This document shows positions 2,975 to 14,946 of a stretch of 64,000 nucleotides of DNA, in pieces (position 1 is the first letter of the stretch; each line of letters opens with the position of its first letter). The notes under the pieces were generated by a model. It saw only the letters and a program-made list of their open reading frames with translations, had not been told where the DNA came from and searched no databases. The DNA comes from Lutibacter sp. HS1-25 (lineage in GTDB: Bacteria > Bacteroidota > Bacteroidia > Flavobacteriales > Flavobacteriaceae), in NCBI RefSeq assembly GCF_004121075.1, contig NZ_RHLN01000002.1, forward strand, positions 1 to 64,000. Direction: 5' to 3'. A program made the translations under genes and the position numbers.

Positions 2975-3517
2975 ATGGATGAATATATTGATATACTAAA
3001 TGAAGTTGGTGAAATTTCAGGAAAAACCTGTTTAAAATCCGAAGCACATCAAAAAGGACTTTTTCACGCATCTGTACATATTTGGATTTTTGATAATCAT
3101 AAAAATATACTGATTCAAAAAAGAGCTTTAAACAAAGACACATTTCCTGGCTTATGGGATATTTCTGTTGCAGGTCATATTTCAGCAGGAGAATTACCAA
3201 TAGATTCTGCTATTAGAGAAGTATCCGAAGAAGTTGGGATTTCAATTCAACAAAAACAATTACATTATATAGGTACTTCAACAAAAAAAGTTACCCATAA
3301 AATTGATCTTATTGACAACGAATTACACCATATATATATATGTAGCATAAATTTTAATATTGAAACCTTAAAAATCCAACAAGAAGAAGTTGCCGAAGTG
3401 AAATTAATTCCGCTAAATGAATTAATTTTAGCAACAAATTTAAACAATACCAGTTTTGTTCCTCACGGAAAATCTTATTACGAATTTGTATTGAATGCTA
3501 TAAAAAACACAAAATGA
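2975..3517 (+). CDS. Nudix hydrolase
   Basis: A 180-residue protein with a complete Nudix box: Gly-x5-Glu-x7-REVSEEVGI, about residues 67-89. Nudix enzymes hydrolyse nucleoside-diphosphate-linked substrates using the Arg and Glu residues of this box to bind magnesium. The N-terminal part (FHASVHIWIFD, then ILIQKRALNKDTFPGLWDISVAGH) resembles the isopentenyl-diphosphate isomerase-like and YfcD-like branch, so the substrate is open. The stop overlaps the next start by 4 bases (ATGA), implying translational coupling with the DUF294 protein. Confidence 0.88.
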   Translation: MDEYIDILNEVGEISGKTCLKSEAHQKGLFHASVHIWIFDNHKNILIQKRALNKDTFPGLWDISVAGHISAGELPIDSAIREVSEEVGISIQQKQLHYIGTSTKKVTHKIDLIDNELHHIYICSINFNIETLKIQQEEVAEVKLIPLNELILATNLNNTSFVPHGKSYYEFVLNAIKNTK

Positions 3518-5430
3518 AAAATACCATTGCCGAACGAATTTTCGATTTTTTAAAAGAATATCCACCTTTCAATTTAATTTCAAAAGAAACTTTATGTGAA
3601 ATTTCTAGAAATGTTGAAATTCAATATTATGAAAAAGACCAAATAATTTTCGATCAAAATGACCCACCTCAAGATAATTTTTACATTATTTATGAAGGTG
3701 TCGTTCGCTTGTATAGATTTGTTGATGACAAAAAAATAAATATTGACATTTGCGATGAGGGGGATGTTTTTGGTTTGCGCCCTTTGATTATGAATGAAAA
3801 CTATACGATGGGAGCTGCTGCAAATGAAGAAACTATTTTGTATGGCATTCCAACACATCTTTTTAAAGATATTATTTTAAACTACCCAAAAGTTAGTCAG
3901 TTTTTAATAGCCAGTTTTGCAACAAACACCCGCGATCCATTTTCAGATAAACACAAAGGGAAACTATTTGCCAATATTTCATCAGTAAATAAAATGGACA
4001 ATAGTTATGCTGAAACTCAATCGGCAAAATACAGTAAAAACCCAATAACCTGTAGCATTAACACTTCTATTAAAGAAGCTTGTATGATTATGACTGGACA
4101 TATTATTAACTCAATAATTGTTTCAGAAAATCATATTCCCATTGGTATTATAACCGATAAAGATATTAGAACAAAAGTAGGAACTGGTGTTTATAGCATT
4201 TTTGACCCTGTTAGCAAAATAATGACAAGTCCGGTAATTACTTTTCCTGAGAACATTACCGTTGCTGAAGCTCAAATTGCGCTAATTAAACACAAAGTTT
4301 CGCACATATGTATTACCAAAGATGGTACTGACCAATCGGAATTGGTTGGTATTTTAGCAGAACATGACTTAACCATGCTTCAAAGCAATAACCCAATATT
4401 TTTAGCACGCGAAATAAAATCGGCCAAAGATGTTGAGACACTTAAATACATTAGAACCAAAGCATCTGAATTAACAAGAGGTTATTTGGAGCAAGAAATT
4501 CCTATTTATTTTATTACCAAAGTTATTTCTGAAATTAATACTGCCATTACAAAACAAATTATAAAACTTGTAATAAAAGAAATTGGAACTGAGCCACCTG
4601 TTGCTTATGCTTGGTTAGCTATGGGAAGTCAAGGTAGAAAAGAACAATTATTAATGACCGATCAAGACAATGCCTTGGTTTTTGAAAATGTTGAAGAAGA
4701 AGATTACGAAAAAACCAAAGCTTATTTTTTAAACTTTTCAACCAAAATAACCGAAAAATTAAACATTGTTGGATTTGAATATTGTCCTGCAAATATTATG
4801 GCAAGCAACCCAAAATGGTGTTTATCTGTAAAAGAATGGAAAGCACAATTTAAAGATTGGGTTAAACATCCAACTTCAGATAAAATATTGTTAAGTATTA
4901 TCTTTTTTGATTTTGAATATATTTTTGGAGATAAGAATTTGTATGAAAGAATGAGTGAAAGTGTATTTAGATACATTGCAAATAAACAAACCTTTTTAGG
5001 CTTTTTAAGTAAAGCTACACTAGACAACCCTGCTCCTCTCGGTTTTTTTAAACAATTTTTAGTTGAACAAGATGGTGAAAATAAAGATCAGTTTGATATA
5101 AAAAGCAGAGCTATTCGTCCGTTGGTTGATGCTGCACGTATTTTTTCATTACATCATAATTTAAAAATAAACAATACCATAGCTCGTTATGAAAAATTAA
5201 TGGAAGTTGAACCTCAAAATAGAGATATTTTTGAGTCTTGCGCCAATGCATTTAAAATATTATTGCAATTTAGAACTTCACAAGGTTTGGCAAAAAATGA
5301 CAGCGGTAAATTTGTAGACATCAATAGTTTAAGTAAATCGGATAGGTTGAAATTAAAAAGCTGTTTTAAACCTATAAAAAACATTCAGGAGTCTTTAAAA
5401 TTAAGATTTAATGTTTCTCAAATTCCATAA
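3514..5430 (+). CDS. cNMP-binding/CBS/DUF294 nucleotidyltransferase-like protein, copy 1
   Basis: A 638-residue predicted cytosolic signalling protein. Domain order: cyclic-nucleotide-binding fold (about 1-130, with YEGVVRLYR and DEGDVFGLRP), two CBS repeats (about 165-290, GIITDKDIRTK and GILAEHDLT), a DUF294 nucleotidyltransferase-like domain with GSQGRKE at 371-377 and Asp383-x-Asp385, and a DUF294 C-terminal domain. The Gly-Ser and DxD residues of the transferase fold are intact, so activity is possible; the substrate is unknown. It overlaps the Nudix gene by 4 bases and is followed after 3 bases by a DEDDh exonuclease. Such DUF294-exonuclease pairs are common in bacteria, often near acetate metabolism genes, but none are seen here. 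Confidence 0.88.
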   Translation: MKNTIAERIFDFLKEYPPFNLISKETLCEISRNVEIQYYEKDQIIFDQNDPPQDNFYIIYEGVVRLYRFVDDKKINIDICDEGDVFGLRPLIMNENYTMGAAANEETILYGIPTHLFKDIILNYPKVSQFLIASFATNTRDPFSDKHKGKLFANISSVNKMDNSYAETQSAKYSKNPITCSINTSIKEACMIMTGHIINSIIVSENHIPIGIITDKDIRTKVGTGVYSIFDPVSKIMTSPVITFPENITVAEAQIALIKHKVSHICITKDGTDQSELVGILAEHDLTMLQSNNPIFLAREIKSAKDVETLKYIRTKASELTRGYLEQEIPIYFITKVISEINTAITKQIIKLVIKEIGTEPPVAYAWLAMGSQGRKEQLLMTDQDNALVFENVEEEDYEKTKAYFLNFSTKITEKLNIVGFEYCPANIMASNPKWCLSVKEWKAQFKDWVKHPTSDKILLSIIFFDFEYIFGDKNLYERMSESVFRYIANKQTFLGFLSKATLDNPAPLGFFKQFLVEQDGENKDQFDIKSRAIRPLVDAARIFSLHHNLKINNTIARYEKLMEVEPQNRDIFESCANAFKILLQFRTSQGLAKNDSGKFVDINSLSKSDRLKLKSCFKPIKNIQESLKLRFNVSQIP

Positions 5431-5433
5431 ATT

Positions 5434-6102
5434 ATGCTGAATTTTTTTAAAAGAAAAAAATATCCCGAGTTTTGGCAAAAGCATATTGATACCGTTAAAA
5501 ATTGTAAAAAATATGCCAATTACGAAAACATACGATTTGTAGCTTTAGATACAGAAACAACAGGATTTGATTATGAAAACGACCGCATTTTATGCATTGG
5601 AGCAGTTGCTATTCAAAATAACAGAATCTTGGTTTCTGACTCTTTTGAAGTATATATAAAACAAGATGTATTTAATAAAGAAACTGTAAAAATTCACGGT
5701 ATACGAAAAAACGGAACCGAAATTAAAGTCAGTGAAGAAGAAGCTTTAATTGCGTTTCTTGACTATTTAGACGATGCCATAATTATTGCACATCATACAA
5801 AATTTGATATGACAATGATTAACAACGCGCTAAAGCGTTTAAATGTTGGCCCAATACAATCTAAACAATTAGACACCAACTATATTCATAAAAAAATAGC
5901 AACCGAAGACCGTTTTAAAAAACTTTTTAGCTTAGATGAACTTTGTGAAATTTACAATGTAAAAAAACACGATCGCCATACCGCATTGGGAGATGCCTTA
6001 ATTACTGCATACATTTTTTTAAAACTGACCTTTAAGTATAAGAAAAACAATGTTTTAAATTTAACTGAATTGATAAATACCAACTACTATTTAAATAAAT
6101 AA
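5434..6102 (+). CDS. DEDDh 3'-5' exonuclease (DnaQ-like), copy 1
   Basis: A 222-residue protein of the DNA polymerase III epsilon-like exonuclease family. Exo I is DTETTGFD, Exo II is AHHTKFD and Exo III is HDRHTALGD, giving the full DEDDh catalytic set. There is no polymerase or helicase domain, so it acts alone or with a partner. It begins 3 nt after the DUF294 stop, indicating cotranslation and a shared function. A paralog at 14284-14946 shares the N-terminal PEFW motif, which seems to mark this subfamily. Confidence 0.9.
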   Translation: MLNFFKRKKYPEFWQKHIDTVKNCKKYANYENIRFVALDTETTGFDYENDRILCIGAVAIQNNRILVSDSFEVYIKQDVFNKETVKIHGIRKNGTEIKVSEEEALIAFLDYLDDAIIIAHHTKFDMTMINNALKRLNVGPIQSKQLDTNYIHKKIATEDRFKKLFSLDELCEIYNVKKHDRHTALGDALITAYIFLKLTFKYKKNNVLNLTELINTNYYLNK

Positions 6103-6120
6103 TTTACTTTTTTGTACTGT

Positions 6121-6128
6121 TATTTTTG
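6121..6128 (+). promoter_or_regulatory. Possible -7 box before DUF294 copy 2
   Basis: TATTTTTG matches TAnnTTTG and lies 33 nt before the chosen ATG. No convincing TTG sits at the -33 distance, so this is a weak call. Confidence 0.4.
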
Positions 6129-6161
6129 TAACTTTAAAGTCTATCGTAGCTTTAATTGATT

Positions 6162-8081
6162 ATGAAAAACACTATTGCTGAACGCATTTTCGATTTTTTA
6201 AAAAACTTCCCTCCTTTTGATCTTTTAGAAAAAGAACAACTTTTTAAAATCGCCTCTCATGTAAAAGTGATATACATTGAAAAAAACGACTTCGTTTTTA
6301 AACAAGCTGAATATCCGCATGAAAATTTTTACATTGTAAAAGATGGTGCTATTGGTTTATACAGAACAATGGATAGCGATCAAATTTTAGTTGATATTTG
6401 TGATGAAGGTGATATTTTTGGTTTAAGACCACTTGTTCAAAACGATCAGTATTTGATGAGTGCAAAAGCAAATGAGGAATCTATTTTATATGCTATTTCG
6501 GTTGAAATTTTAAAAGAAATTATCAATTCAAATGAAAAGGTTAAAAAATATATAATTGCCAGTTTTTCTTCAAATATTAAAACACCTTATGCCAGAACAA
6601 ATCCTGGAAATTTGTTTGCAAATATTGACAATCTTGAAAACGACAATACTTTTTCTGAAGTTCAAACAGCACAATACAGCAAAAATCCCATATTTTGCAG
6701 TAAAGAAACTACTATTAAAGAAGCTGCTTTGATTATGAGCGAAAAAAAAGTAGGTTCTATATTGATTGTTGAAGATCAAAAACCCATTGGCATTATTACC
6801 GATAAAGATTTACGCACAAAAATTGCAACGGGATTGATTTCAATAGAAAAAAAAGTGAGTGAAATTATGTCATCTCCAGTCATCACTTTTTCTGAAAAAA
6901 TTACCATAGCTGAAGCTCAAATAGCTATGATTAAACACAAAATTACCCATTTGTGTATTACAAAAAATGGCACTCCAAACGCTGAACTCACGGGAATTTT
7001 ATCTGAACATGACATTGTGGTATTACACGGTAACAATCCTTCTGTATTGATTAAGGAATTAACAAGAGCAAAAGAAGTAGCAACCTTAAAATATGTAAGA
7101 GAAAAAACTTCTAATTTATTAAAAGGCTATATTGAACAAAATATACCTATCGCATTTATTTCAAAAATAATTGCAGAAATAAATGATGCTATAACCATTA
7201 AAGCAATTGAACTTTCTTTGGCTGAAATGGAAACTGCACCACCCGTAAAATTTGGTTGGCTTGCCTTAGGAAGTCAGGGGCGAAAAGAGCAATTGTTAAT
7301 TACAGATCAAGACAATGCTTTGATTTTTGAAGATGTATCAAAAGAAGATTACAAAAAAACAAAAGCTTATTTTTTACAACTTTCAGAAAAAATTACCATT
7401 AAATTAAATACAGTTGGCTACGAATTTTGCCCAGCAGATATGATGGCAAGTAACCCAAAATGGTGCTTATCGCTTTCTGAATGGAAACAACAATTTAATA
7501 CTTGGATTACAAAACCAACAGAAGAAGCTATCATGATGTGTACCATCTTTTTTGATTACAATTTTGTCTATGGCGATAAAGAACTGGTGCATAAACTCAC
7601 TAAAAGTATCTTTAAATCTGTACAGTCTTTTGAAATATTTTTAAATTTATTAGGTAAAAATGCGTTAAAAAATCCATCGCCACTGGGTTTTTTCAGACAA
7701 TTTTTGGTTGAACATGATGGTGAACACAAAGACCAATTCGATTTAAAAAGCAGGGCTTTGATGCCTTTAATTGATGCTGCTCGTTTGCTAACTTTATCGC
7801 ACAATATAAAAGATAAAAATAATACCATTGCACGTTTTAATAAATTAGTAAAAATTGAACCACAAAATAAAGACTTATACCTTTCATGTGCCGATTCATT
7901 TAAAATATTATTGCATTATAGAACTGAACAAGGCTTGAAATACAATAATTCAGGTAGGTATATTGCATTAAATACTTTGTCAAAATCTGACAAGCTAAAA
8001 CTAAAAGGTTGTTTTAAATCAATTAATGATATACAAGATTTGATAAAAATTAGATTCAGTTTAAGTCTTATTGGTCTATAA
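6162..8081 (+). CDS. cNMP-binding/CBS/DUF294 nucleotidyltransferase-like protein, copy 2
   Basis: A 639-residue paralog of the protein at 3514-5430, alignable end to end. It has the same first residues (MKNTIAERIFDFLK), a cNMP-binding fold, two CBS repeats (GIITDKDLRTK, GILSEHDIVVL), GSQGRKE with the DxD of the transferase fold, and the same C-terminal domain. An in-frame TTG at 6156 is possible, but the ATG at 6162 reproduces the copy 1 start. The direct-orientation arrangement with exonuclease copy 1 between them implies tandem duplication. Unlike copy 1, no exonuclease follows directly; its likely partner is 6.2 kb away. Confidence 0.88.
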   Translation: MKNTIAERIFDFLKNFPPFDLLEKEQLFKIASHVKVIYIEKNDFVFKQAEYPHENFYIVKDGAIGLYRTMDSDQILVDICDEGDIFGLRPLVQNDQYLMSAKANEESILYAISVEILKEIINSNEKVKKYIIASFSSNIKTPYARTNPGNLFANIDNLENDNTFSEVQTAQYSKNPIFCSKETTIKEAALIMSEKKVGSILIVEDQKPIGIITDKDLRTKIATGLISIEKKVSEIMSSPVITFSEKITIAEAQIAMIKHKITHLCITKNGTPNAELTGILSEHDIVVLHGNNPSVLIKELTRAKEVATLKYVREKTSNLLKGYIEQNIPIAFISKIIAEINDAITIKAIELSLAEMETAPPVKFGWLALGSQGRKEQLLITDQDNALIFEDVSKEDYKKTKAYFLQLSEKITIKLNTVGYEFCPADMMASNPKWCLSLSEWKQQFNTWITKPTEEAIMMCTIFFDYNFVYGDKELVHKLTKSIFKSVQSFEIFLNLLGKNALKNPSPLGFFRQFLVEHDGEHKDQFDLKSRALMPLIDAARLLTLSHNIKDKNNTIARFNKLVKIEPQNKDLYLSCADSFKILLHYRTEQGLKYNNSGRYIALNTLSKSDKLKLKGCFKSINDIQDLIKIRFSLSLIGL

Positions 8082-8086
8082 ACAAA

Positions 8087-8110
8087 AGAGAGTCGCTTTC
8101 GCAACTCTCT
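8087..8110 (+). terminator. Hairpin after DUF294 copy 2
   Basis: AGAGAGT at 8087-8093 pairs with ACTCTCT at 8104-8110, with an inner GC/GC pair and a TTTC loop. It starts 6 nt after the stop. The downstream tract is CT-rich rather than pure T, so terminator strength is uncertain. Confidence 0.6.
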
Positions 8111-8208
8111 CTCTCTATAGTATATTAAACCGCCCAAAGTTTAATACCTATATTTCACTTTCTCATAATATTTTAATTTATAATGGTTATTTTTAAGATA
8201 ATAACCTT

Positions 8209-8361
8209 TTACAATTCATTTTCTTCTGATATTTTTTTCCAAGAATGATTTGATAGTTTTACTTTAAAATTGGGTTGTTTACATTTTTTTGGAGTCCCTA
8301 TTTTAGAAATTAAAGTATCATTTCTTGTTATTCCACAAATTCTACATTCGTAGGTTGCCAT
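8209..8361 (-). CDS. Small CxxC protein (50 aa), zinc-ribbon-like
   Basis: A 50-residue frame starting MATYECRICG, with one CxxC (Cys6, Cys9), a further Cys at about 27 (KKCK) and a His near 40. It is basic and has no membrane segment. One CxxC plus a lone Cys may form an incomplete or dimeric zinc site; this is inference. Support for it being real comes from its promoter: a -7 box TAGTTTTG 22 nt before the ATG and a palindrome just beyond it, with the same geometry as the promoter at 11860-11898, which also shares the first codons. Function unknown; it may be a regulator or an accessory member of the WYL-controlled set. Confidence 0.65.
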   Translation of the reverse strand: MATYECRICGITRNDTLISKIGTPKKCKQPNFKVKLSNHSWKKISEENEL

Positions 8362-8383
8362 AGTCTATTTTAAATTTTAAAAA

Positions 8384-8421
8384 CAAAACTAACTTGCTAA
8401 AACAGACAAAAAAGTCTATTT
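8384..8421 (-). promoter_or_regulatory. Promoter-operator 1 (WYL-type palindrome)
   Basis: The minus-strand -7 box TAGTTTTG (8384-8391) is followed, 8 bp further upstream, by the inverted repeat AAACAGAC-N6-GTCTATTT (8400-8421), one mismatch between arms. It shares box, spacing and palindrome type with the site at 11860-11898. The palindrome would cover the -33 region, so a bound repressor would block sigma. The regulator is inferred to be the WYL protein at 11927-12913. Confidence 0.65.
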
Positions 8422-8599
8422 AATAAATTAAAATTATTTTAAATAAGTATTTATTTTTTATAATTATCGAGATGTTTTGTTAAGCATCTACACTTATACT
8501 CCTATATTTTATTTACTGGAGTTGACTTCCTTTTATGGAAGAACAATTTTTTTACTTTTCTTTTTTTAAATTTAAATCATTCAAATTTGTATTTTAATG

Positions 8600-8977
8600 T
8601 TAACGATATAAATAATGATATGATAACTCTGAATTATTTTTATAATACTTTACTAAAACAACACTTAAAGATGTTACTGCAGCTTCAATAACTGATGCAT
8701 CGTCTATTAAACCAAAAACCGGAATCATATCTGGAATTGCATCAATAGGTGAAATTACATATAAAAGAGCACCAATAGCGATAGCTTTATTACACCAAGC
8801 TCCTTTTGGGTCTCTTATAAATCCCCATAATTGTTCAACTTTACACCATACCTGTTTTAAAGCACCTTTGTTCATTTCTTCAATTGCTGCATTTATCTTT
8901 TTTATATCATTTTCATTTGCATTCATTGTATAACAATTGAATTTCTTCTCAGCTTTTTTACTTAATTTCTTTTCCAT
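8600..8977 (-). CDS. YkvA family protein (DUF1232)
   Basis: A 125-residue protein containing the DUF1232 signature LLYVISPIDAIPDMIPVFG followed by LIDDASVIEAAV, about residues 71-100. This family is small, usually has one or two membrane-associated hydrophobic segments around the SPID-IPD motif, and its role is unsettled. The N-terminal 40 residues are charged and lysine rich. It stands alone: the nearest upstream gene is separated by a strong terminator at 9226-9263. The long untranslated region upstream (see 8978-9225) may carry its promoter. Confidence 0.88.
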   Translation of the reverse strand: MEKKLSKKAEKKFNCYTMNANENDIKKINAAIEEMNKGALKQVWCKVEQLWGFIRDPKGAWCNKAIAIGALLYVISPIDAIPDMIPVFGLIDDASVIEAAVTSLSVVLVKYYKNNSELSYHYLYR

Positions 8978-9225
8978 TTAGATGCAATTTTTAAATTAAT
9001 AATTTTAGAATTTTGATATTAAAACTCTGACTAGCCAATATTTAAAGACATTCTCTTCTGTTAATTTACACTTCAATTACATCAATAATTTACTTGGATT
9101 TTCATTTCAAAATGTTGGCTTGCCTTGTTTTTAATTATGGTAACAAACTTACCCAAATCTGAACATTAAATTTTACGGTTTTCCGCAATTTAGGAGATTT
9201 TTTATTTATCTTTTTTTAGTGATGT
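8978..9225 (-). promoter_or_regulatory. Regulatory region upstream of the ykvA-like gene
   Basis: No reading frame seen. A -7 box TAAGTTTG lies on the minus strand at 9144-9151, which would give a leader of about 160 nt. Twenty-one bp beyond the box is the imperfect palindrome TTACGGttttCCGcAA at 9173-9188, placed over the expected -33 region. The palindrome differs from the WYL-type sites in sequence and spacing. Confidence 0.4.
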
Positions 9226-9263
9226 AACAAAAATAGAGTTGCTTTTGCAACTCTATTTTTGTT
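9226..9263 (-). terminator. Strong terminator after the HNH/coiled-coil operon
   Basis: A 17-bp perfect stem, arms 9226-9242 and 9247-9263, core AGAGTTGC / GCAACTCT with a TTTT loop. Flanking A and T runs allow it to work on either strand. It lies 84 nt beyond the end of the 252-residue gene and insulates it from ykvA. Confidence 0.85.
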
Positions 9264-9346
9264 AGAAGATTAAATAATCATGTTGAATTAATTTAGTGGA
9301 ACTCTTTTTTATTAATTGCTTTAAATGATTGATTTTTTTCAACTAT

Positions 9347-10105
9347 TTACAAATATTTATTGGTTATAATATAAAACAAAAACCCTAAAATAATTATTAG
9401 GTTTGTCATTGAAAATATAATTAATAGATTGATTTTCTTTTTTTGATTACTTAAAGTTTTTTCATTTTTTTTCTCGGAAATGACATTAATTAATGTTTCA
9501 ATATTTTCAATCTTATTGGAAGTCGCAATCTTTTCTAATTTAAGTTTTTTATCAATTTCTCTTATATTATCATTGATAATTCCAAAATTATATTCAATTT
9601 TATCTGCTCGTTTTCTTTCTTCGACAGTTTTCTCAATTTGTGAAATAACAATCCTTTTTATATGATTTCCTTGTACTTCATTACCATTTGAACTTTCTTT
9701 AATTTGATTTATAATACCCTCTAATTCAGCACTAGTTTCACTTATTTTCTCAAATGAAAGTCCTGATAACATTGCTAAAGCTCCTACCATTTCAGCTAAT
9801 AATTTCGAATTTTCGTTATTATTAGTAATTAGTTTGCTTATTGAAGAAATTGATTTAGACGTTGCATTGTTATCCTCTTTAATTAAATCAAGTAAAGCTT
9901 GTTTATCTAGACTTCCCCAACTTCTTCCTTTTTTGCCATTGCAAACTTCTTCAATTGAGCTTTGTGCCCTGTTAATATTACTTAATAAACTCTTAGCATT
10001 TCTATTTGACTCTTCATACCTGTTATTTACCAAAGTTATTTTGTCAATAATCTTTTTTGCATCTACTATACTTGTAACATTTTCTGATATTTCAACCTCT
10101 TTCAT
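9347..10105 (-). CDS. Tail-anchored coiled-coil protein of unknown function
   Basis: A 252-residue protein I do not recognise. Residues 1-220 are mostly charged, predicted helical and heptad-like, with short hydrophobic patches (AEMVGALAMLSGLSFEKI, about 104-121). Residues about 226-247 form a single strong transmembrane segment (LLIIFSMTNLIIILGFLFYI) with only a few residues after it. This is a C-terminal membrane anchor with the bulk of the chain likely in the cytosol. It starts 2 nt after the stop of the HNH-like gene, so the two are made together and probably form one complex. There is no enzymatic motif; a sensor, scaffold or partner role is inference. Confidence 0.75.
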   Translation of the reverse strand: MKEVEISENVTSIVDAKKIIDKITLVNNRYEESNRNAKSLLSNINRAQSSIEEVCNGKKGRSWGSLDKQALLDLIKEDNNATSKSISSISKLITNNNENSKLLAEMVGALAMLSGLSFEKISETSAELEGIINQIKESSNGNEVQGNHIKRIVISQIEKTVEERKRADKIEYNFGIINDNIREIDKKLKLEKIATSNKIENIETLINVISEKKNEKTLSNQKKKINLLIIFSMTNLIIILGFLFYIITNKYL

Positions 10106-10107
10106 AT

Positions 10108-11781
10108 TTAAATACTTTCTAATAAGTTTAATAAATTATCATTTTCATTATTTATAGCTTTAGCAGAAGATATATTTTCAGAAATAATATTCTTTGTTTT
10201 TCTTATTTTCACTAAAGATTCATCAATTTGATTTTTGCAAGACTCTATTATTGGCAATGTACCTTGAAAAATTGTTAGTGATAAACTTGTATATTTTGTT
10301 GCTTCCACGTCACTTATTCCAGCTTGAGCTAAATTAATTTCGGATCGTGTTTGTAGTTTAGAACCTTCCTCCCCCTGAAGTTTATTAAATACAATTTTAC
10401 TTTGATATTTCTGAAACCCTTGAAGAATTAAAACTGAACCAATGCCAACGATTAAACCTGATAGCACAGGCGAAACATAACCTGCAAATGGAGTAGTAAA
10501 TGGAAAGTTAGTTATTAATGCCTTTTCAATAATTTCATCAAGTCCTAGACCAATTAATGAGGCCACAGCAACTCCTAAAATCTTCAAAGCTTCCTTTAAT
10601 CTAACCTCCCACGAATATTCACTTGAAAACAATATTTTTACAGCTTTCAAAATTGAAACAATTGCTAGTTTAACAAATTTGAAAATGTTTTTTGCAATTT
10701 TAAATAAGCTATTTAAAATTGCGTCTAAAAATGTAGAAAGAAAACTACTTATTGAGTGGTCTTTAAAAGTAGAGAGTAAACCTTTGGCTTTTTCTTTAAT
10801 CCTAAATGAAATATTTTTAACTCTTTGAGTAATTTCAATGTCTTCTTCTTTTTTATATTCATTAATTACTTCTACTATAGTAATAGAAAGCAATTGACCA
10901 ATTGCAGCTTTTGCTCCACTTTTAACTGCGTTTGATGTAGCTATTTTTGCTTGAGTTTTTACAGCATATTGCACTTGTTTACTCTTTAAAAGATGTTCTC
11001 TAGCTTTTTTACTAACATCTATAGTTTTGGACATTTTTTCATCATCAATTTCAAAATGTTCTTTGTTTGTTTTGTTAGAGTCGTTTGTAGATGTTTTATT
11101 TTTATAATCTTCTACATCATCTATTTTTGTGTCATTTAAAGATGTATTCAGTTTTTTATTAGTAGCAACTAAATTTTCTTTCGAATTTGCTAATTTTTTT
11201 CTTTCTTCTAATGTAGTTGTAAATGCTAAAACTTTGTCCTCATGAATTTCTTTTATTGACGTAACGTGTTCATATGAATATTGTTTAGTTTCATCCTTTT
11301 CTCCATTTAATAAGTGTTTTCCAGTGTAAGCACAATCGTATCCTCCTCCATTTTCATTATACATTTTTTGTCTGTTTTTCGCAAACTCTTTTCCTGTTAA
11401 TGATTCCCTATGTTCAGAATAATTATATTTTAAATTGTCACCTTCTTTCAACATTCTATTGAATTCGTCCTTATTAGTATATTTTACTTTATACTCAAGA
11501 CTTCTTTCGCTTTTTGGAGTGTTTTCCCATTTTGTTTTAGCTTTAAATTCTTTGTCAAAAGCGAGTCCATTGGTACTATGGTTTGAGTTTTCTAATATAT
11601 CTGAAATTCCTAATGCCATTGTAATAGTCTCAATAGATTTGGATTGAATGGCATTCATCATTTGTCCATTCATTTTTGAAGGATCTGCATCCTTCATTTT
11701 TTTTTGAAGTTCAATTATTTCGTCTAATAAATCTTGTTCTTCTTTTTTTAAATCTATTTTTATTTTTTCATAGTCCACCAT
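10108..11781 (-). CDS. HNH-like (His-Me finger) nuclease with C-terminal membrane domain
   Basis: A 557-residue protein from ATG 11781 (a TTG at 11790 is an in-frame alternative). Residues about 147-214 look like an HNH nuclease core: CAYTGKHLL at 150-158, then YEHVTS with His172, then ENLVATNKKLN at 202-212 supplying the Asn positions, an order like HNH domains that begin C-x-YTG. The second metal-binding Cys pair is absent. Residues about 220-260 are polar and low in complexity. Residues about 290-455 are rich in hydrophobic and amphipathic helices, including a Gly-rich pair near 400-415 and 437-455. The C-terminus is again helical. No known family is recognised. Operon partner: the tail-anchored protein. 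The context suggests an inducible membrane-linked nuclease, possibly for phage defence (inference). Confidence 0.75.
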   Translation of the reverse strand: MVDYEKIKIDLKKEEQDLLDEIIELQKKMKDADPSKMNGQMMNAIQSKSIETITMALGISDILENSNHSTNGLAFDKEFKAKTKWENTPKSERSLEYKVKYTNKDEFNRMLKEGDNLKYNYSEHRESLTGKEFAKNRQKMYNENGGGYDCAYTGKHLLNGEKDETKQYSYEHVTSIKEIHEDKVLAFTTTLEERKKLANSKENLVATNKKLNTSLNDTKIDDVEDYKNKTSTNDSNKTNKEHFEIDDEKMSKTIDVSKKAREHLLKSKQVQYAVKTQAKIATSNAVKSGAKAAIGQLLSITIVEVINEYKKEEDIEITQRVKNISFRIKEKAKGLLSTFKDHSISSFLSTFLDAILNSLFKIAKNIFKFVKLAIVSILKAVKILFSSEYSWEVRLKEALKILGVAVASLIGLGLDEIIEKALITNFPFTTPFAGYVSPVLSGLIVGIGSVLILQGFQKYQSKIVFNKLQGEEGSKLQTRSEINLAQAGISDVEATKYTSLSLTIFQGTLPIIESCKNQIDESLVKIRKTKNIISENISSAKAINNENDNLLNLLESI

Positions 11782-11842
11782 ATAATCCAATTATTAATTT
11801 ATACAAAAGAGCACTTTGTTTTAATTTCAAATGTTGCCATAG
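11768..11842 (-). CDS. Short upstream ORF or gene remnant before the HNH-like gene
   Basis: A 24-codon frame beginning MATFEIKKQS and ending TGA at 11768-11770. Its start is 18 nt after the -7 box at 11860-11867. Its first codons match those of the 50-residue CxxC gene (MAT-Tyr/Phe-Glu), as does the DNA just before the ATG. It overlaps the HNH-like start by 14 nt, so it could couple translation of that gene, or be a decayed CxxC gene whose promoter was captured. Translation is not proven. Confidence 0.4.
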   Translation of the reverse strand, partial: LWQHLKLKQSALLYKLIIGLYGGL

Positions 11843-11859
11843 TTTTTTTTTATAAAACA

Positions 11860-11898
11860 AACCTAGCTATCTAAAACGGACAAACAAAGTCCGTTTAG
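11860..11898 (-). promoter_or_regulatory. Promoter-operator 2 (WYL-type palindrome) of the HNH operon
   Basis: The minus-strand -7 box TAGGTTTG (11860-11867) has a TTTG -33 element at 11887-11890, 19 nt away. The -33 element sits inside the perfect inverted repeat AAACGGAC-N7-GTCCGTTT (11876-11898), 8 bp beyond the -7 box. Site 1 at 8384-8421 has the same layout. A protein bound here would exclude RNA polymerase. The site lies 28 bp past the end of the WYL regulator gene, which is the natural candidate repressor. Confidence 0.75.
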
Positions 11899-11926
11899 AA
11901 AAAAATTAAGAAAATTTTAAGAAATA

Positions 11927-12913
11927 CTAATTGTAGTATTTTACAATTAAATTAAGATGTTCTTTGAAGAAATCAACAACAGGTTTTGGAGAAACTATTT
12001 TAACCCATTGATTGTATTTTAGCATTTCCATAACAAACTCATAATTAACTTTTAAGGTCACTTCAATTTCGCCCCACATATCGGGATTGGCGTAATTAAG
12101 TTCGTTGGTATCCATTTCAATTGCTTCAGCAATTATTTTTTGACTTTTATGAATTGGTTGTGCTATCAAATATTTTAAATGATGATTGGCTACTTTTATT
12201 TTAATTTTTTCAACCTTTAAACCCTCATTTAAAATTCCTATTGAATATTTAAAATAGTCTTGTTCATTAAATTTAATTGGATTTTGCACTTTTATATTAA
12301 AAATTTGAATTTCGACCAAACGCTTGTCTAAACAAAAAGTTTTTATTTCTTTTTCATAAATCGCATAAGCTATTAAATACCAAGCTTTGTTCTTTTCTTT
12401 AATATGTAACGGTTGAAATTGTTGTTTTTCGAGACATTCAAATTTATTATCATCATACCAACCTTTATAAGATATATGTACTAAAAAATTATTTTCAATA
12501 GCATTTATTAAGCTCAATAAATCAATTGTAGTATTTAAAGTTGCTTTTTCTGGCGTAATGTTAAAGTTATTTTCAGCGGCTTTTGTACTAATTAATAAAT
12601 GTTCTATTCTATAAAACACGTTTTCCATTTCTTGCGAAATAGTTCCTTTTTGGACATAATAGCCATAATTTCTTTTCAATTTAATTTCAACACCAAAATA
12701 TTCTTTGATAGATTTTAAATCTCTTCGAAGCGTTTTTTCACCATTAAATTTTAATTTCCCAAGAAAAGTATTGTTTTTAAAATCTTCGTACTTTTTATCT
12801 AGTACTCTTTGAAGTTCTTTATTAGATACATACTTGTCTGTATATATCCCAAAATACTTTGGATTAGATACAATTTTAAGAATATAATATCTTCTAAAAA
12901 ATTCAGCTGTCAT
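11927..12913 (-). CDS. WYL-domain transcriptional regulator
   Basis: A 328-residue protein. The N-terminal winged-helix region is about residues 25-88 (TLRRDLKSIKEYFGVEI, then the wing NYGYYV). The WYL domain is about 135-205, with Trp178-Tyr179-Leu180 in KAWYLIAYA and the conserved Arg in LDKRLVEI. A C-terminal extension (WCX-like, about 230-328) follows. WYL regulators sense nucleic-acid-type or nucleotide ligands and often repress phage-defence operons (BrxR, CapW). The gene lies directly upstream of, and in the same direction as, the HNH-like operon, with a palindromic operator between. It is divergent from a flippase gene 62 bp away. Confidence 0.9.
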   Translation of the reverse strand: MTAEFFRRYYILKIVSNPKYFGIYTDKYVSNKELQRVLDKKYEDFKNNTFLGKLKFNGEKTLRRDLKSIKEYFGVEIKLKRNYGYYVQKGTISQEMENVFYRIEHLLISTKAAENNFNITPEKATLNTTIDLLSLINAIENNFLVHISYKGWYDDNKFECLEKQQFQPLHIKEKNKAWYLIAYAIYEKEIKTFCLDKRLVEIQIFNIKVQNPIKFNEQDYFKYSIGILNEGLKVEKIKIKVANHHLKYLIAQPIHKSQKIIAEAIEMDTNELNYANPDMWGEIEVTLKVNYEFVMEMLKYNQWVKIVSPKPVVDFFKEHLNLIVKYYN

Positions 12914-12950
12914 TCATTAATTTTGAAACAAGAATACAAAAAAAGTTTAA

Positions 12951-12958
12951 TAAGTTTG
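12951..12958 (+). promoter_or_regulatory. -7 box of the flippase gene
   Basis: TAAGTTTG matches TAnnTTTG and lies 17 nt before the ATG at 12976. TTTG at 12922-12925 is 25 nt upstream, longer than usual for a -33 element. Confidence 0.45.
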
Positions 12959-12975
12959 CAGCAGAAACAAAAAAC

Positions 12976-14238
12976 ATGGCTCAACTTTTTAGCAAACAAG
13001 ATTTATTAAATACAAAGTGGTTTATTGCTGAAAAGCTTACTAGTTTATTAGTTGCAATTATCATTGTTCCAAAAATTTTTAAATCAATTGGCATTTTAAA
13101 CATTGGAAAATTAAAATTTGCCGAAACATTTATTAGCTTTTTTACACCTATTATGTTTTTAGGACTTTCTGCAATTTGCATTCGTGAAATTGTATTTTAT
13201 CCAAAGCGAACAAAATTAATTCTTTCAACTGCACTTTACTTAAGAACAGCGAGTTGGTTATTAGCGCTGCTAATTATTTTAACTTATAGTTATTTGTTTA
13301 TTGATAAAGAGTTATTAATGCTTTATTTTGTAATTTGCTTTAGCTATTTTGTTAGAATTTTTGATGTTTTTGAATATTATTTTTACGCCATAAAAAAAAC
13401 AAAATATGTATTTATAAGTAAAATATCAAGTTTATTTATCATTGTAGTACTTCAATATTATGGGGTTATACAGCAATTTGGTATTATTTATTTTGCTTCA
13501 TTAATAATTTTTGATTTTTTAATTCAAAGTACCATCTACTTTGGCATTGTAAAAACTAAAAATATTTTCAATTTTAAAGACCTTGTATTTTCAAAATCAA
13601 TGGCGATCTATTTACTTAAAAATGCATTTCCGTTGGTAATTTCCAACTTTTTAATACTTATTTATATTGTTACAGACGATTTCTTTTTAAAATATTATCA
13701 CGGAGACGCATCTTATGGTTACTATGCTACTATCTATTTCTTAATCATTACTTTAACCTGGAGCATTGGTTTTTCAATCATTAATGCATTGTTTCCTTCA
13801 TTGGCCGAATCTTACACGTCAAACCTTAAAATATATTATCAAAAAATAAGTTTGCTAATTGCTTATATGCTTGTATTGGGCGTTTTAATTATTTTAATTT
13901 ATCACTTTTTCAGCAATGCTATTTTAAATACATTTTTTGATGAAAGTTTTCTTAAAATCAACTACTCTTTAAAGCTATTTAGTTGGGGACCTCTTATGAT
14001 TTTTATGGGTATGATTTATGAAAAGCACCTAATTACAACAAATCGTATTGAAAAAAACGTGTATCGTTTTGTACTTGGCTGTATCTCAAATCTATTTTTT
14101 TCTATTATTTTAATACCAAAATACGCAATTAATGGCGCAATAATAGCTGTTTTAGTAAGCCATTTTTTGACCAATATTGCCTTTGTTTTTTTTGATGCTA
14201 AAAGCAGAAAGGAATTAAAGTTTTTATTTCTGAAATAA
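12976..14238 (+). CDS. Polysaccharide flippase (Wzx-like, MOP superfamily)
   Basis: A 420-residue integral membrane protein with about 12 hydrophobic segments across its length. The pattern fits MOP-superfamily lipid-linked oligosaccharide flippases: an N-terminal pair of helices, the central VTDDFFLKYYHGDASYGYYAT region (about 232-252) typical of Wzx, and a C-terminal block with PKYAINGAIIAVLVSH. It would move undecaprenyl-linked glycan repeats across the inner membrane. No glycosyltransferase is adjacent, so it is an orphan, in contrast with the flippase at 35459-36919 inside a glycan cluster. Confidence 0.82.
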   Translation: MAQLFSKQDLLNTKWFIAEKLTSLLVAIIIVPKIFKSIGILNIGKLKFAETFISFFTPIMFLGLSAICIREIVFYPKRTKLILSTALYLRTASWLLALLIILTYSYLFIDKELLMLYFVICFSYFVRIFDVFEYYFYAIKKTKYVFISKISSLFIIVVLQYYGVIQQFGIIYFASLIIFDFLIQSTIYFGIVKTKNIFNFKDLVFSKSMAIYLLKNAFPLVISNFLILIYIVTDDFFLKYYHGDASYGYYATIYFLIITLTWSIGFSIINALFPSLAESYTSNLKIYYQKISLLIAYMLVLGVLIILIYHFFSNAILNTFFDESFLKINYSLKLFSWGPLMIFMGMIYEKHLITTNRIEKNVYRFVLGCISNLFFSIILIPKYAINGAIIAVLVSHFLTNIAFVFFDAKSRKELKFLFLK

Positions 14239-14283: not shown

Positions 14284-14946
14284 ATGTTCTCGTTTTTTAA
14301 ACATAGAAACTATCCCGAATTTTGGAAAAACTACTTAAAAAAGTTTAAACAAAAACAACCAAAAACCATTGAAACCACGCGTTTTGTTGTTTTTGATACC
14401 GAAACTACAGGTTTAGATTTGGCAAAAGACAAAATTTTGTCTATTGGCGCAGTAGCTATTAATAATAAAATTATTGATGTTTCTGATAGTTTTGAAATTT
14501 ACTTAAAACAAGACGAATTTAATGCTGAAACTGTTGAAATTCACGGACTTTTAAAAGATGGCCATTTGATAAAATCTGCTGAAAAAGAAGCCATAGAACA
14601 GTTTGTTAATTATTTAGAAAATTCTGTTTTAGTTGCACACCACGCTGCTTTTGATGTTGAAATGATTAACGCAGCACTAAAAAGAGTCAACCTTCCAAAA
14701 TTGAAAAACAAAACCATTGATACCGGAATATTGTATAAAAAATTAGCCGACAAAAAGGATAGCCATTTTAACTTAGATGTACTGTGTGAAGAATTTAACA
14801 TTCCAAAACACGACCGACATACAGCTTCTGGAGATGCTTTTATTACTGCGCTCCTTTTTTTAAAAATTATTTCGAAACTCAAAAAAGAACGAACCGTCCA
14901 TTATTCCGATTTATTTAGAACATCCAATAACAAAGGCCTTTTATAA
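14284..14946 (+). CDS. DEDDh 3'-5' exonuclease (DnaQ-like), copy 2
   Basis: A 220-residue paralog of the exonuclease at 5434-6102. It has the same N-terminal pattern (FFK, then YPEFWK), Exo I DTETTGLD, Exo II AHHAAFD and Exo III HDRHTASGD. All DEDDh residues are present, so it should be active. It is preceded by the flippase gene, not by a DUF294 gene, although its closest paralog is coupled to one. The likely explanation is that it was once the partner of DUF294 copy 2 and was parted from it by insertion of the 8.1-14.2 kb segment. It converges on ligA with 10 bp between the stops. Confidence 0.9.
   Translation: MFSFFKHRNYPEFWKNYLKKFKQKQPKTIETTRFVVFDTETTGLDLAKDKILSIGAVAINNKIIDVSDSFEIYLKQDEFNAETVEIHGLLKDGHLIKSAEKEAIEQFVNYLENSVLVAHHAAFDVEMINAALKRVNLPKLKNKTIDTGILYKKLADKKDSHFNLDVLCEEFNIPKHDRHTASGDAFITALLFLKIISKLKKERTVHYSDLFRTSNNKGLL

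What the first reader, a model, noticed from the sequence alone, without database searches (positions are those of the whole stretch)
9347..12913. Candidate new WYL-controlled membrane nuclease operon (possible anti-phage system)
Seen: a WYL regulator, then a palindromic operator, then a 557-residue protein with an HNH-like core (CAYTG, EHV, ENLVATN) joined to a hydrophobic helical C-terminal half, then a tail-anchored coiled-coil protein whose gene starts 2 nt later. Established: WYL regulators BrxR and CapW repress phage-defence loci by binding inverted repeats. Inference: the two proteins form a membrane-linked nuclease complex that is held off by the WYL protein and used in defence. I do not recognise either protein from a named defence system. 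The segment looks accessory because it lies between two genes that appear to have been neighbours.
Basis: partly seen in the sequence, partly recalled or inferred. Interest (0 to 1): 0.8.

Follow-up and report, generated by a model that had tools for sequence, protein, structure and literature searches.

The report
Swappable nuclease cassette beside WYL regulator
Next to a resident gene-control protein this bacterium has a chromosomal slot whose contents differ from species to species, and here the slot holds a probable membrane-linked DNA-cutting enzyme with a helper protein that may defend against viruses but has not been tested.

Summary
The observed parts are there: WYL gene, palindrome, 557-aa HNH-type protein, and a 252-aa tail-anchored helical protein starting 2 nt later. 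The HNH protein is not family-less: it matches PADLOC's untested candidate PDC-M40B (E 1.1e-30), with relatives in several phyla, often beside WYL, coiled-coil/membrane, TerB or YkgJ genes and near defence genes. H172, N203 and N212 are kept in 86 of 86 aligned proteins. No credible homologue of the helper was found. The main surprise is the site. The WYL gene and its divergent flippase neighbour are resident (pair kept in 15 of 16 genomes with the WYL ortholog), while the content downstream of WYL varies: near-empty, HNH modules, a GTPase/DUF697 module, other gene sets. A palindrome 6 or 8 bp before a TAnnTTTG box follows WYL; the composite motif has 14 exact matches in 50 whole genomes, all within 3.4 kb downstream of WYL. 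Some slots hold a second copy, and one empty site matches the outer flanks of a two-copy slot. So the regulator and operator were not acquired with the HNH pair, which is one cargo of a WYL-controlled variable slot. Anti-phage activity, complex formation and repression are inferred, not shown.

The parts
12976..14238 (+). flippase-like gene (Polysacc_synt), divergent resident neighbour of WYL
   Evidence: Pfam 1.6e-12; adjacent to the WYL ortholog in 15 of 16 genomes
11927..12913 (-). WYL-domain regulator, resident
   Evidence: Pfam WYL 2.2e-6, 28 bits vs cut-off 21.8; PADLOC WYL 1.3e-18; orthologs at 63-76% in 3 same-genus genomes without the HNH pair
11858..11896 (-). putative promoter-operator: palindrome 11874-11896 followed 8 bp later by TAGGTTTG (11858-11865)
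   Evidence: the TAnnTTTG -7 box of Bacteroidota is recalled knowledge
11799..11840 (-). cut-off DUF6140-type leader frame (13 codons)
   Evidence: same start MATFEIKTK as the 69-aa DUF6140 frame of L115
10108..11781 (-). HNH-type protein, PDC-M40B-like, 557 aa
   Evidence: PADLOC PDLC04630 1.1e-30; H172, A198, N203, N212 in 86 of 86; model local pLDDT 74-89 over residues 131-220
11140..11334 (-). HNH core, residues 150-214 (E171, H172, N203, N212)
10423..10686 (-). hydrophobic helical region, residues 366-453
   Evidence: Kyte-Doolittle scan; 28 of 63 relatives weakly match the membrane family BPD_transp_1, best 4.8e-6
9347..10105 (-). partner: helical protein with C-terminal hydrophobic anchor (residues 229-247, 9365-9421)
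   Evidence: no match on plasmids; no credible match in 296 genomes of the order
9212..9277 (-). terminator-like inverted repeat after the two-gene unit
   Evidence: arms 31 nt, 84% complementary, 4 nt apart
8600..8977 (-). DUF1232 protein, third gene of the slot
   Evidence: Pfam 2.9e-15; homologous DUF1232 in the L160 slot
8384..8417 (-). second, degenerate operator copy
   Evidence: 75% over 85 columns with the first copy including the following ATGGCAAC; looser motif scan
8209..8361 (-). ZR50: 50-aa Cys-rich (zinc-ribbon-like by eye) small protein
   Evidence: homologues in slots L115, L156, L158, L159, L161, L163; no Pfam family
6156..8081 (+). cNMP/CBS/DUF294 protein, far border of the slot in this genus
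   Evidence: Pfam; same border in L115, L116, L117

Best explanation
The segment is a cargo slot controlled by a resident WYL protein. The WYL protein binds the palindrome that lies just upstream of a -7 box and keeps the downstream promoter off until stress or infection (inferred by analogy with BrxR and CapW). In this genome the slot carries a two-gene PDC-M40B-like unit: an HNH-type nuclease with membrane-type helices and a tail-anchored helical partner. When released, the two form a membrane-linked complex that senses infection at the membrane and lets the HNH domain cut DNA, phage or host (inferred). Shown by sequence: the gene order, the HNH residues, the WYL-operator-slot association, the variable content. 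Inferred: DNA binding, repression, complex, trigger, cleavage, defence.
For: PDC-M40B match 1.1e-30. H172, A198, N203 and N212 in 86 of 86 aligned relatives; position 171 D in 85, E here. Strands 147-149, 156-158, 168-172, 204-208 and following helices at local pLDDT 74-89. Weak HNH-type Pfam hits in relatives: GmrSD_C 7 of 63, HNH_4 6 of 63, GH-E 2 of 63. Of 79 genome loci found with the main branch, 79 have a coiled-coil 'chemotaxis-like' gene, 75 a YkgJ gene and 45 a WYL gene within 4.5 kb on the same strand; 30 of the 46 with enough flank have WYL. Neighbours of 14 of these 79 loci matched 173 PADLOC models at E<=1e-15 (132 proteins; ZorD, REase_I, MkoC, ZacC among them) against 80 models in 14 control stretches of the same genomes (134 proteins). 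In one of two E. coli regions opened the system lies beside type I-E CRISPR-Cas. Composite motif: 4 sites in 38 genus genomes, exactly in the 4 with the WYL ortholog, and 10 sites in the 12 other WYL genomes, all within 3.4 kb downstream of WYL.
Against: No wet evidence, and PADLOC 'PDC' means untested candidate. Pfam finds no HNH domain in the window protein itself; neither the full-model Foldseek search (0 of 155 matches at E<=0.001) nor the profile searches against PDB sequences found a nuclease. The partner has no homologue, so conserved pairing of these two genes cannot be tested; relatives carry different partners. On the tree the window protein is a lone long branch, not grouped with the relatives that also have coiled-coil plus C-terminal-anchor partners. 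Most other slot cargo has no PADLOC match: of 10 cargo proteins only two matched better than 1e-4 (L156 148 aa to PDC-M40B, 9e-7; L160 370 aa to LeoBC, 1.2e-7). No match in phages or viral contigs. The PADLOC counts are of overlapping models, not of proteins.
Confidence: 0.5

Rival explanations
1. The pair is a stress module rather than a phage-specific one: WYL senses DNA damage or nucleotides and switches on a membrane-linked nuclease as part of a Ter-like or DNA-damage response.
For: TerB-like, glycine-zipper partners beside relatives (L004, L122, L123, L125, L014, L126); TerB genes within 4.5 kb of 4 of 79 main-branch loci; WYL proteins also control DNA-damage responses (search listing only).
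Against: Defence-gene-rich neighbourhoods of the sampled relatives compared with matched controls; accessory distribution, 430 of 5,426 E. coli genomes.
Confidence: 0.2
2. The partner is an inhibitor: a toxin-antitoxin-like pair in which the anchored helical protein holds the nuclease inactive at the membrane until infection breaks the contact.
For: Genes 2 nt apart; in L007 and L121 HNH and partner frames overlap by 4 nt; partner types vary while the HNH protein stays.
Against: In main-branch relatives of Proteobacteria the partner gene comes before the HNH gene, in Firmicutes after it, and partner sequences are not homologous, which is unusual for a specific inhibitor. Not tested here.
Confidence: 0.15
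3. The WYL protein activates rather than represses the slot.
For: Some WYL proteins are activators (title and abstract of PMC10693628 in a search listing); the palindrome lies upstream of, not over, the -7 box.
Against: BrxR and CapW are repressors that bind palindromes at promoters (passages).
Confidence: 0.25
4. A secreted or contact-dependent toxin with a membrane-crossing half.
For: Nuclease-type domain joined to hydrophobic helices in one protein.
Against: No immunity-like or secretion genes seen in the slot; HNH part lies before, not after, the hydrophobic half; relatives sit with WYL and defence genes.
Confidence: 0.04

Closest known systems
PDC-M40 (PADLOC-DB 2.0 phage defence candidate, B component)
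   Same: HNH-type protein matches model PDLC04630 at 1.1e-30 over residues 114-471
   Different: No second-component model was hit by the partner (only DruC at 0.21); candidate untested; 0 papers with the name in the searched library
Main-branch operon WYL / coiled-coil 'chemotaxis' protein / HNH ('cobalamin adenosyltransferase' in annotations) / YkgJ
   Same: Same HNH core and membrane-type C-terminal half, WYL often adjacent
   Different: Window has no YkgJ and no homologue of the coiled-coil protein; 16-24% identity to the main-branch rows of A5
BrxR and CapW WYL regulators
   Same: WYL protein, perfect palindrome, downstream accessory genes (passages of PMC9122601, and PMC9122588)
   Different: Operator lies downstream of the WYL gene before the cargo, and the WYL gene stays while cargo is exchanged; in the cited work the site is in the promoter upstream of brxR, or in the CBASS promoter with capW on the opposite strand

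Membership tests
PDC-M40 (PADLOC candidate) | B component matches the PDC-M40B model | tested here: met
   1.1e-30, 104.9 bits; G000 8.1e-30 in genome search, 0 of 14 control genomes
PDC-M40 (PADLOC candidate) | second component present | tested here: inconclusive
PDC-M40 (PADLOC candidate) | anti-phage activity | not testable with these tools
   needs plaque assays
HNH / His-Me finger nuclease | catalytic His and Asn residues conserved | tested here: met
   H172, N203, N212 in 86 of 86; D171 is E here
HNH / His-Me finger nuclease | beta-beta-alpha arrangement around them | tested here: inconclusive
   strands and helices in order at local pLDDT 74-89, but no structural match at E<=0.001 with the full model
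HNH / His-Me finger nuclease | match to a curated HNH family | tested here: not met
   window protein: 0 Pfam families at E<=1 and at E<=10; weak hits only in relatives
BrxR/CapW-type regulator | WYL domain | tested here: met
   28 bits vs 21.8 cut-off
BrxR/CapW-type regulator | palindrome in the promoter of the controlled genes | tested here: met
   relaxed palindrome within 350 nt after WYL in 14 of 16 genomes, strict composite in 11 of 16
BrxR/CapW-type regulator | binds the palindrome and represses | not testable with these tools
   needs EMSA and reporter assays
Ter-type stress system | TerB domain partner | tested here: not met
   no TerB match in the window partner and none by profile in the window; met in some relatives

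The most novel reading that the evidence does not exclude
A family-wide cassette site in which a resident WYL protein owns one promoter-operator sequence, and copies of that operator flank the cargo as direct repeats, so that unrelated effector sets can be exchanged by recombination at the operator and come under the regulator's control at once: a regulator-anchored, operator-flanked cassette slot for (probably defence) genes.
Probability: 0.35. Interest if true: 0.8.

Novelty: new variant of a known kind. Interest (0 to 1): 0.6.

Why it matters
Most defence hotspots are described by their borders or by mobile elements. Here one regulator with a motif that is nearly unique per genome marks the slot, so new cargo can be found by a DNA pattern plus a WYL gene, and the question how incoming defence genes come under safe control becomes testable. 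It also ties an untested candidate nuclease, found in 430 of 5,426 complete E. coli genomes in its main-branch form, to a common layout that can be assayed in laboratory strains.

Tried and rejected
Tried without result: Pfam, NCBIfam and PHROGs for both proteins; phage and viral-contig searches; homologues of the partner (the one weak hit outside this genome, G656, falls in a ribosomal-protein/rpoA operon, taken as chance); Rfam on 7900-13000 (only a chance CRISPR-repeat hit at E 0.94); Foldseek with the full HNH model and PDB sequence searches; cargo proteins L159 681 aa and L161 578 aa on plasmids (none; one at 21% identity).

Rejected: that the WYL gene came with the HNH pair. That the palindrome is a dispersed repeat (one site per genome in the genus). 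That the window pair belongs to the branch of L007/L121/L124 because the partner architecture looks alike: the tree does not group them and the partners are not alike in sequence.

Limits: the 79 genome loci came from patterns of the main branch only (best 80 of 121 kept), so the partner counts describe that branch, not the window's. The coiled-coil profile can pick up unrelated coiled coils. For DUF6140, 4 of 6 carrier genomes (of 319 searched) have the WYL ortholog; the other two, G820 and G1011, show no operator in the 2.2-3.2 kb fetched; the P of 1.7e-5 used 349, not 319, genomes. Organism and family name of the window are not given by any tool; 'Flavobacteriaceae' is my inference.
Full report
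What is there. The four elements of the finding are present at the stated places. The palindrome is perfect and has no other match at up to 3 mismatches in the window or the genome. The HNH protein carries three hydrophobic stretches in its C-terminal half and the partner one near its C-terminus. The partner's model is all-helical at mean pLDDT 52.8, so 'coiled coil' is plausible rather than shown. A terminator-like inverted repeat follows the pair at 9212-9277.

The HNH protein. It matches PADLOC model PDC-M40B at 1.1e-30 and no Pfam, NCBIfam or PHROG family at a meaningful level. In 100 related genomes only 3 have any match (own; G032 with a 32% HNH-part hit in a 140-aa frame about 40 kb from its slot; G062 weak); the PADLOC model finds 3 of 395 genomes of the phylum, and a nine-row profile 4 of 395 of the order, three of them HNH part only. 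Farther away relatives are common: 28 plasmid records with the window protein, none covered to 80%; 61 with the relative L007; 121 confirmed stretches among 84,980 species genomes with a main-branch query, the best 80 kept as 79 loci, from Enterobacteria, Lachnospiraceae, Treponema, Desulfovibrio, Cryptobacteroides and others; and 430 of 5,426 E. coli genomes, 365 of them with at least 80% of the WYL/coiled-coil/HNH query.

Active site. In an alignment of 86 proteins H172, A198, N203 and N212 are invariant; position 171 is D in 85 and E in the window. The order DH(V/I)...N...N is that of HNH nucleases as I recall it, Cas9 included. The model places strands at 147-149, 156-158, 168-172 and 204-208 and helices after them at local pLDDT 74-89. 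Curated support is weak: among 63 relatives 7 hit GmrSD_C (best 0.02), 6 HNH_4 (best 0.0044) and 2 GH-E, the window protein none. Foldseek with the whole model gave 155 matches at E<=10 and none at E<=0.001; PDB sequence searches gave no nuclease. I take 'HNH-type nuclease' as likely (about 0.8), not proven.

Neighbours of relatives. Of the 79 main-branch loci 79 have a coiled-coil 'chemotaxis-like' gene, 75 a YkgJ (CxxCxxCC) gene, 45 a WYL gene and 4 a TerB gene within 4.5 kb on the same strand; among 46 loci with enough flank 30 have WYL. Relatives closer to the PADLOC model have other partners: long helical proteins, with a predicted C-terminal hydrophobic stretch in L007 and L124 and, below my cut-off, a hydrophobic end in L121, or TerB-like and glycine-zipper proteins, homologous to one another (L004, L122, L123, L125, L014, L126). 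So the HNH protein is the constant part and the membrane or helical partner varies. The tree has the window protein as a lone long branch.

Defence context. For 14 of the 79 loci, chosen because they lie on long contigs, 132 neighbouring proteins matched 173 PADLOC models at E<=1e-15; the 25 listed include ZorD, a type I restriction subunit, MkoC, ZacC, MzaA and SspE. The same test on 134 proteins from 14 arbitrary stretches of the same genomes matched 80 models, the listed ones coming mainly from a reverse transcriptase, a UvrD-like helicase and mad3-like proteins. These are counts of overlapping models, not of proteins. Single cases: type I-E CRISPR-Cas next door in an E. coli tRNA-Phe island (another E. 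coli island opened lacks it), a Sau3AI-type enzyme, Csm6, an AbaSI-type enzyme. The window's own neighbourhood beyond four proteins was not scanned with PADLOC; by Pfam its near neighbours are not defence genes.

The slot. Three same-genus genomes have the WYL ortholog (76, 76, 63%) with flippase, exonuclease and DUF294 gene in the same order and no HNH pair. In G024 about 330 bp separate WYL from the DUF294 gene; in G032 two other genes of 588 and 174 aa (plus 114 aa) lie there; in G008 a DUF6140 gene and a 176-aa gene. Twelve further genomes of the family have the ortholog at 40-47% (13 of 349 at E<=1e-40 including the window). Of all 16, 15 have the flippase divergently next to WYL (not L164; broken frame in L116). 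Downstream of WYL: near-empty in L116, L157 and L165; ZR50 only in L158; HNH-type genes in the window, L156 (148 aa), L159 (145 aa, with a 681-aa protein) and L163 (144 aa, with a 679-aa protein and an ATPase-like protein); a GTPase/DUF697 protein and DUF1232 in L160; 578/179/364-aa and 578/174/415-aa sets in L161 and L162; other sets in L115, L117, L166, L167; L164 has a different surrounding. The small HNH proteins are linked to PDC-M40B or the window protein by L156 (9e-7) and L163 (1.8e-6); a phmmer comparison at 1e-4 did not link them to the window protein. Most other cargo has no PADLOC match.

The operator. Within 350 nt after WYL a relaxed palindrome is found in 14 of 16 genomes and the strict composite (palindrome, then TAnnTTTG) in 11 of 16; elsewhere in the same 500,190 nt (both strands) the strict form occurs 3 times, each time farther down the same slot (L159 +3250, L160 +2339, L167 +3165). 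By whole-genome pattern search the motif has 4 sites in 38 genus genomes, one in each genome with the WYL ortholog and none in the other 34, against 1 for the reversed control pattern, and 10 sites in 9 of the 12 other WYL genomes, control 0. All 14 lie within 3.4 kb downstream of WYL. L165, near-empty, has no palindrome; L158 has only a degenerate one by eye. The motif was drawn from these loci, so the within-slot counts are not independent of it; the absence elsewhere is.

Exchange. The window has a second, degenerate copy at 8384-8417, 75% alike over 85 columns including the following ATGGCAAC. In L159 the cargo lies between two copies; the near-empty L157 of the same genus matches L159 on the left up to the operator (84% over 157 columns), and on the right matches L159 after its second copy (79% over 296 columns), not after its first (58%). 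This is what gain or loss by recombination between operator copies would leave, but it is one pair of genomes. In L160 the second copy lies inside the slot, before DUF1232, so second copies may also simply be second promoters.

Reading. A resident WYL regulator controls a variable slot; here the cargo is a divergent PDC-M40B-like nuclease pair. Control by analogy: BrxR binds an 11-bp inverted repeat with 5-bp spacer and represses, and of 347 BrxR homologues 48.41% have a known defence system downstream (passages of PMC9122601); CapW represses CBASS through palindromes of about 19-24 bp over the -10 site (abstract and passages of PMC9122588). The TAnnTTTG box is recalled, not from a call. Two other PADLOC candidates tested by others, PDC-M63AB and PDC-S04, showed no activity in that model (passages of PMC12409345), a warning against reading 'PDC' as 'defence'. 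'PDC-M40' and 'DUF6140' were in 0 papers each of the searched library, which holds open-licence PubMed Central papers only and no preprint collection.

Noticed in passing
L161 oriented 4914-5719 (WYL on + strand): ZR50 and DUF6140 small genes occur twice in tandem before the cargo, as if slots grow by module duplication.
   Followed up: partly
window 8120-8148 (-) and the matching ends of L115, L116, L117: By eye, a short hairpin with a similar loop (TTTGGG) and changing stems stands at the far end of the slot before a terminator-like repeat (sequences); no Rfam match.
   Followed up: no
L009, L119, L120 and 430 of 5,426 E. coli genomes: Main-branch HNH proteins are annotated as cobalamin adenosyltransferase or ATPase and their partners as chemotaxis protein; probably misnamed.
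   Followed up: partly
window 3514-8081: Two cNMP/CBS/DUF294-type genes with an exonuclease-like gene between them; a further exonuclease-like gene lies beyond the flippase at 14284-14946.
   Followed up: no
L116 5445-6706: The flippase frame beside the near-empty slot of G024 is broken.
   Followed up: no
L161, L162, L115: A second recurrent cargo set (578-588 aa, 174-179 aa and a third gene), no PADLOC match for the tested members; one distant plasmid relative in Segatella.
   Followed up: partly
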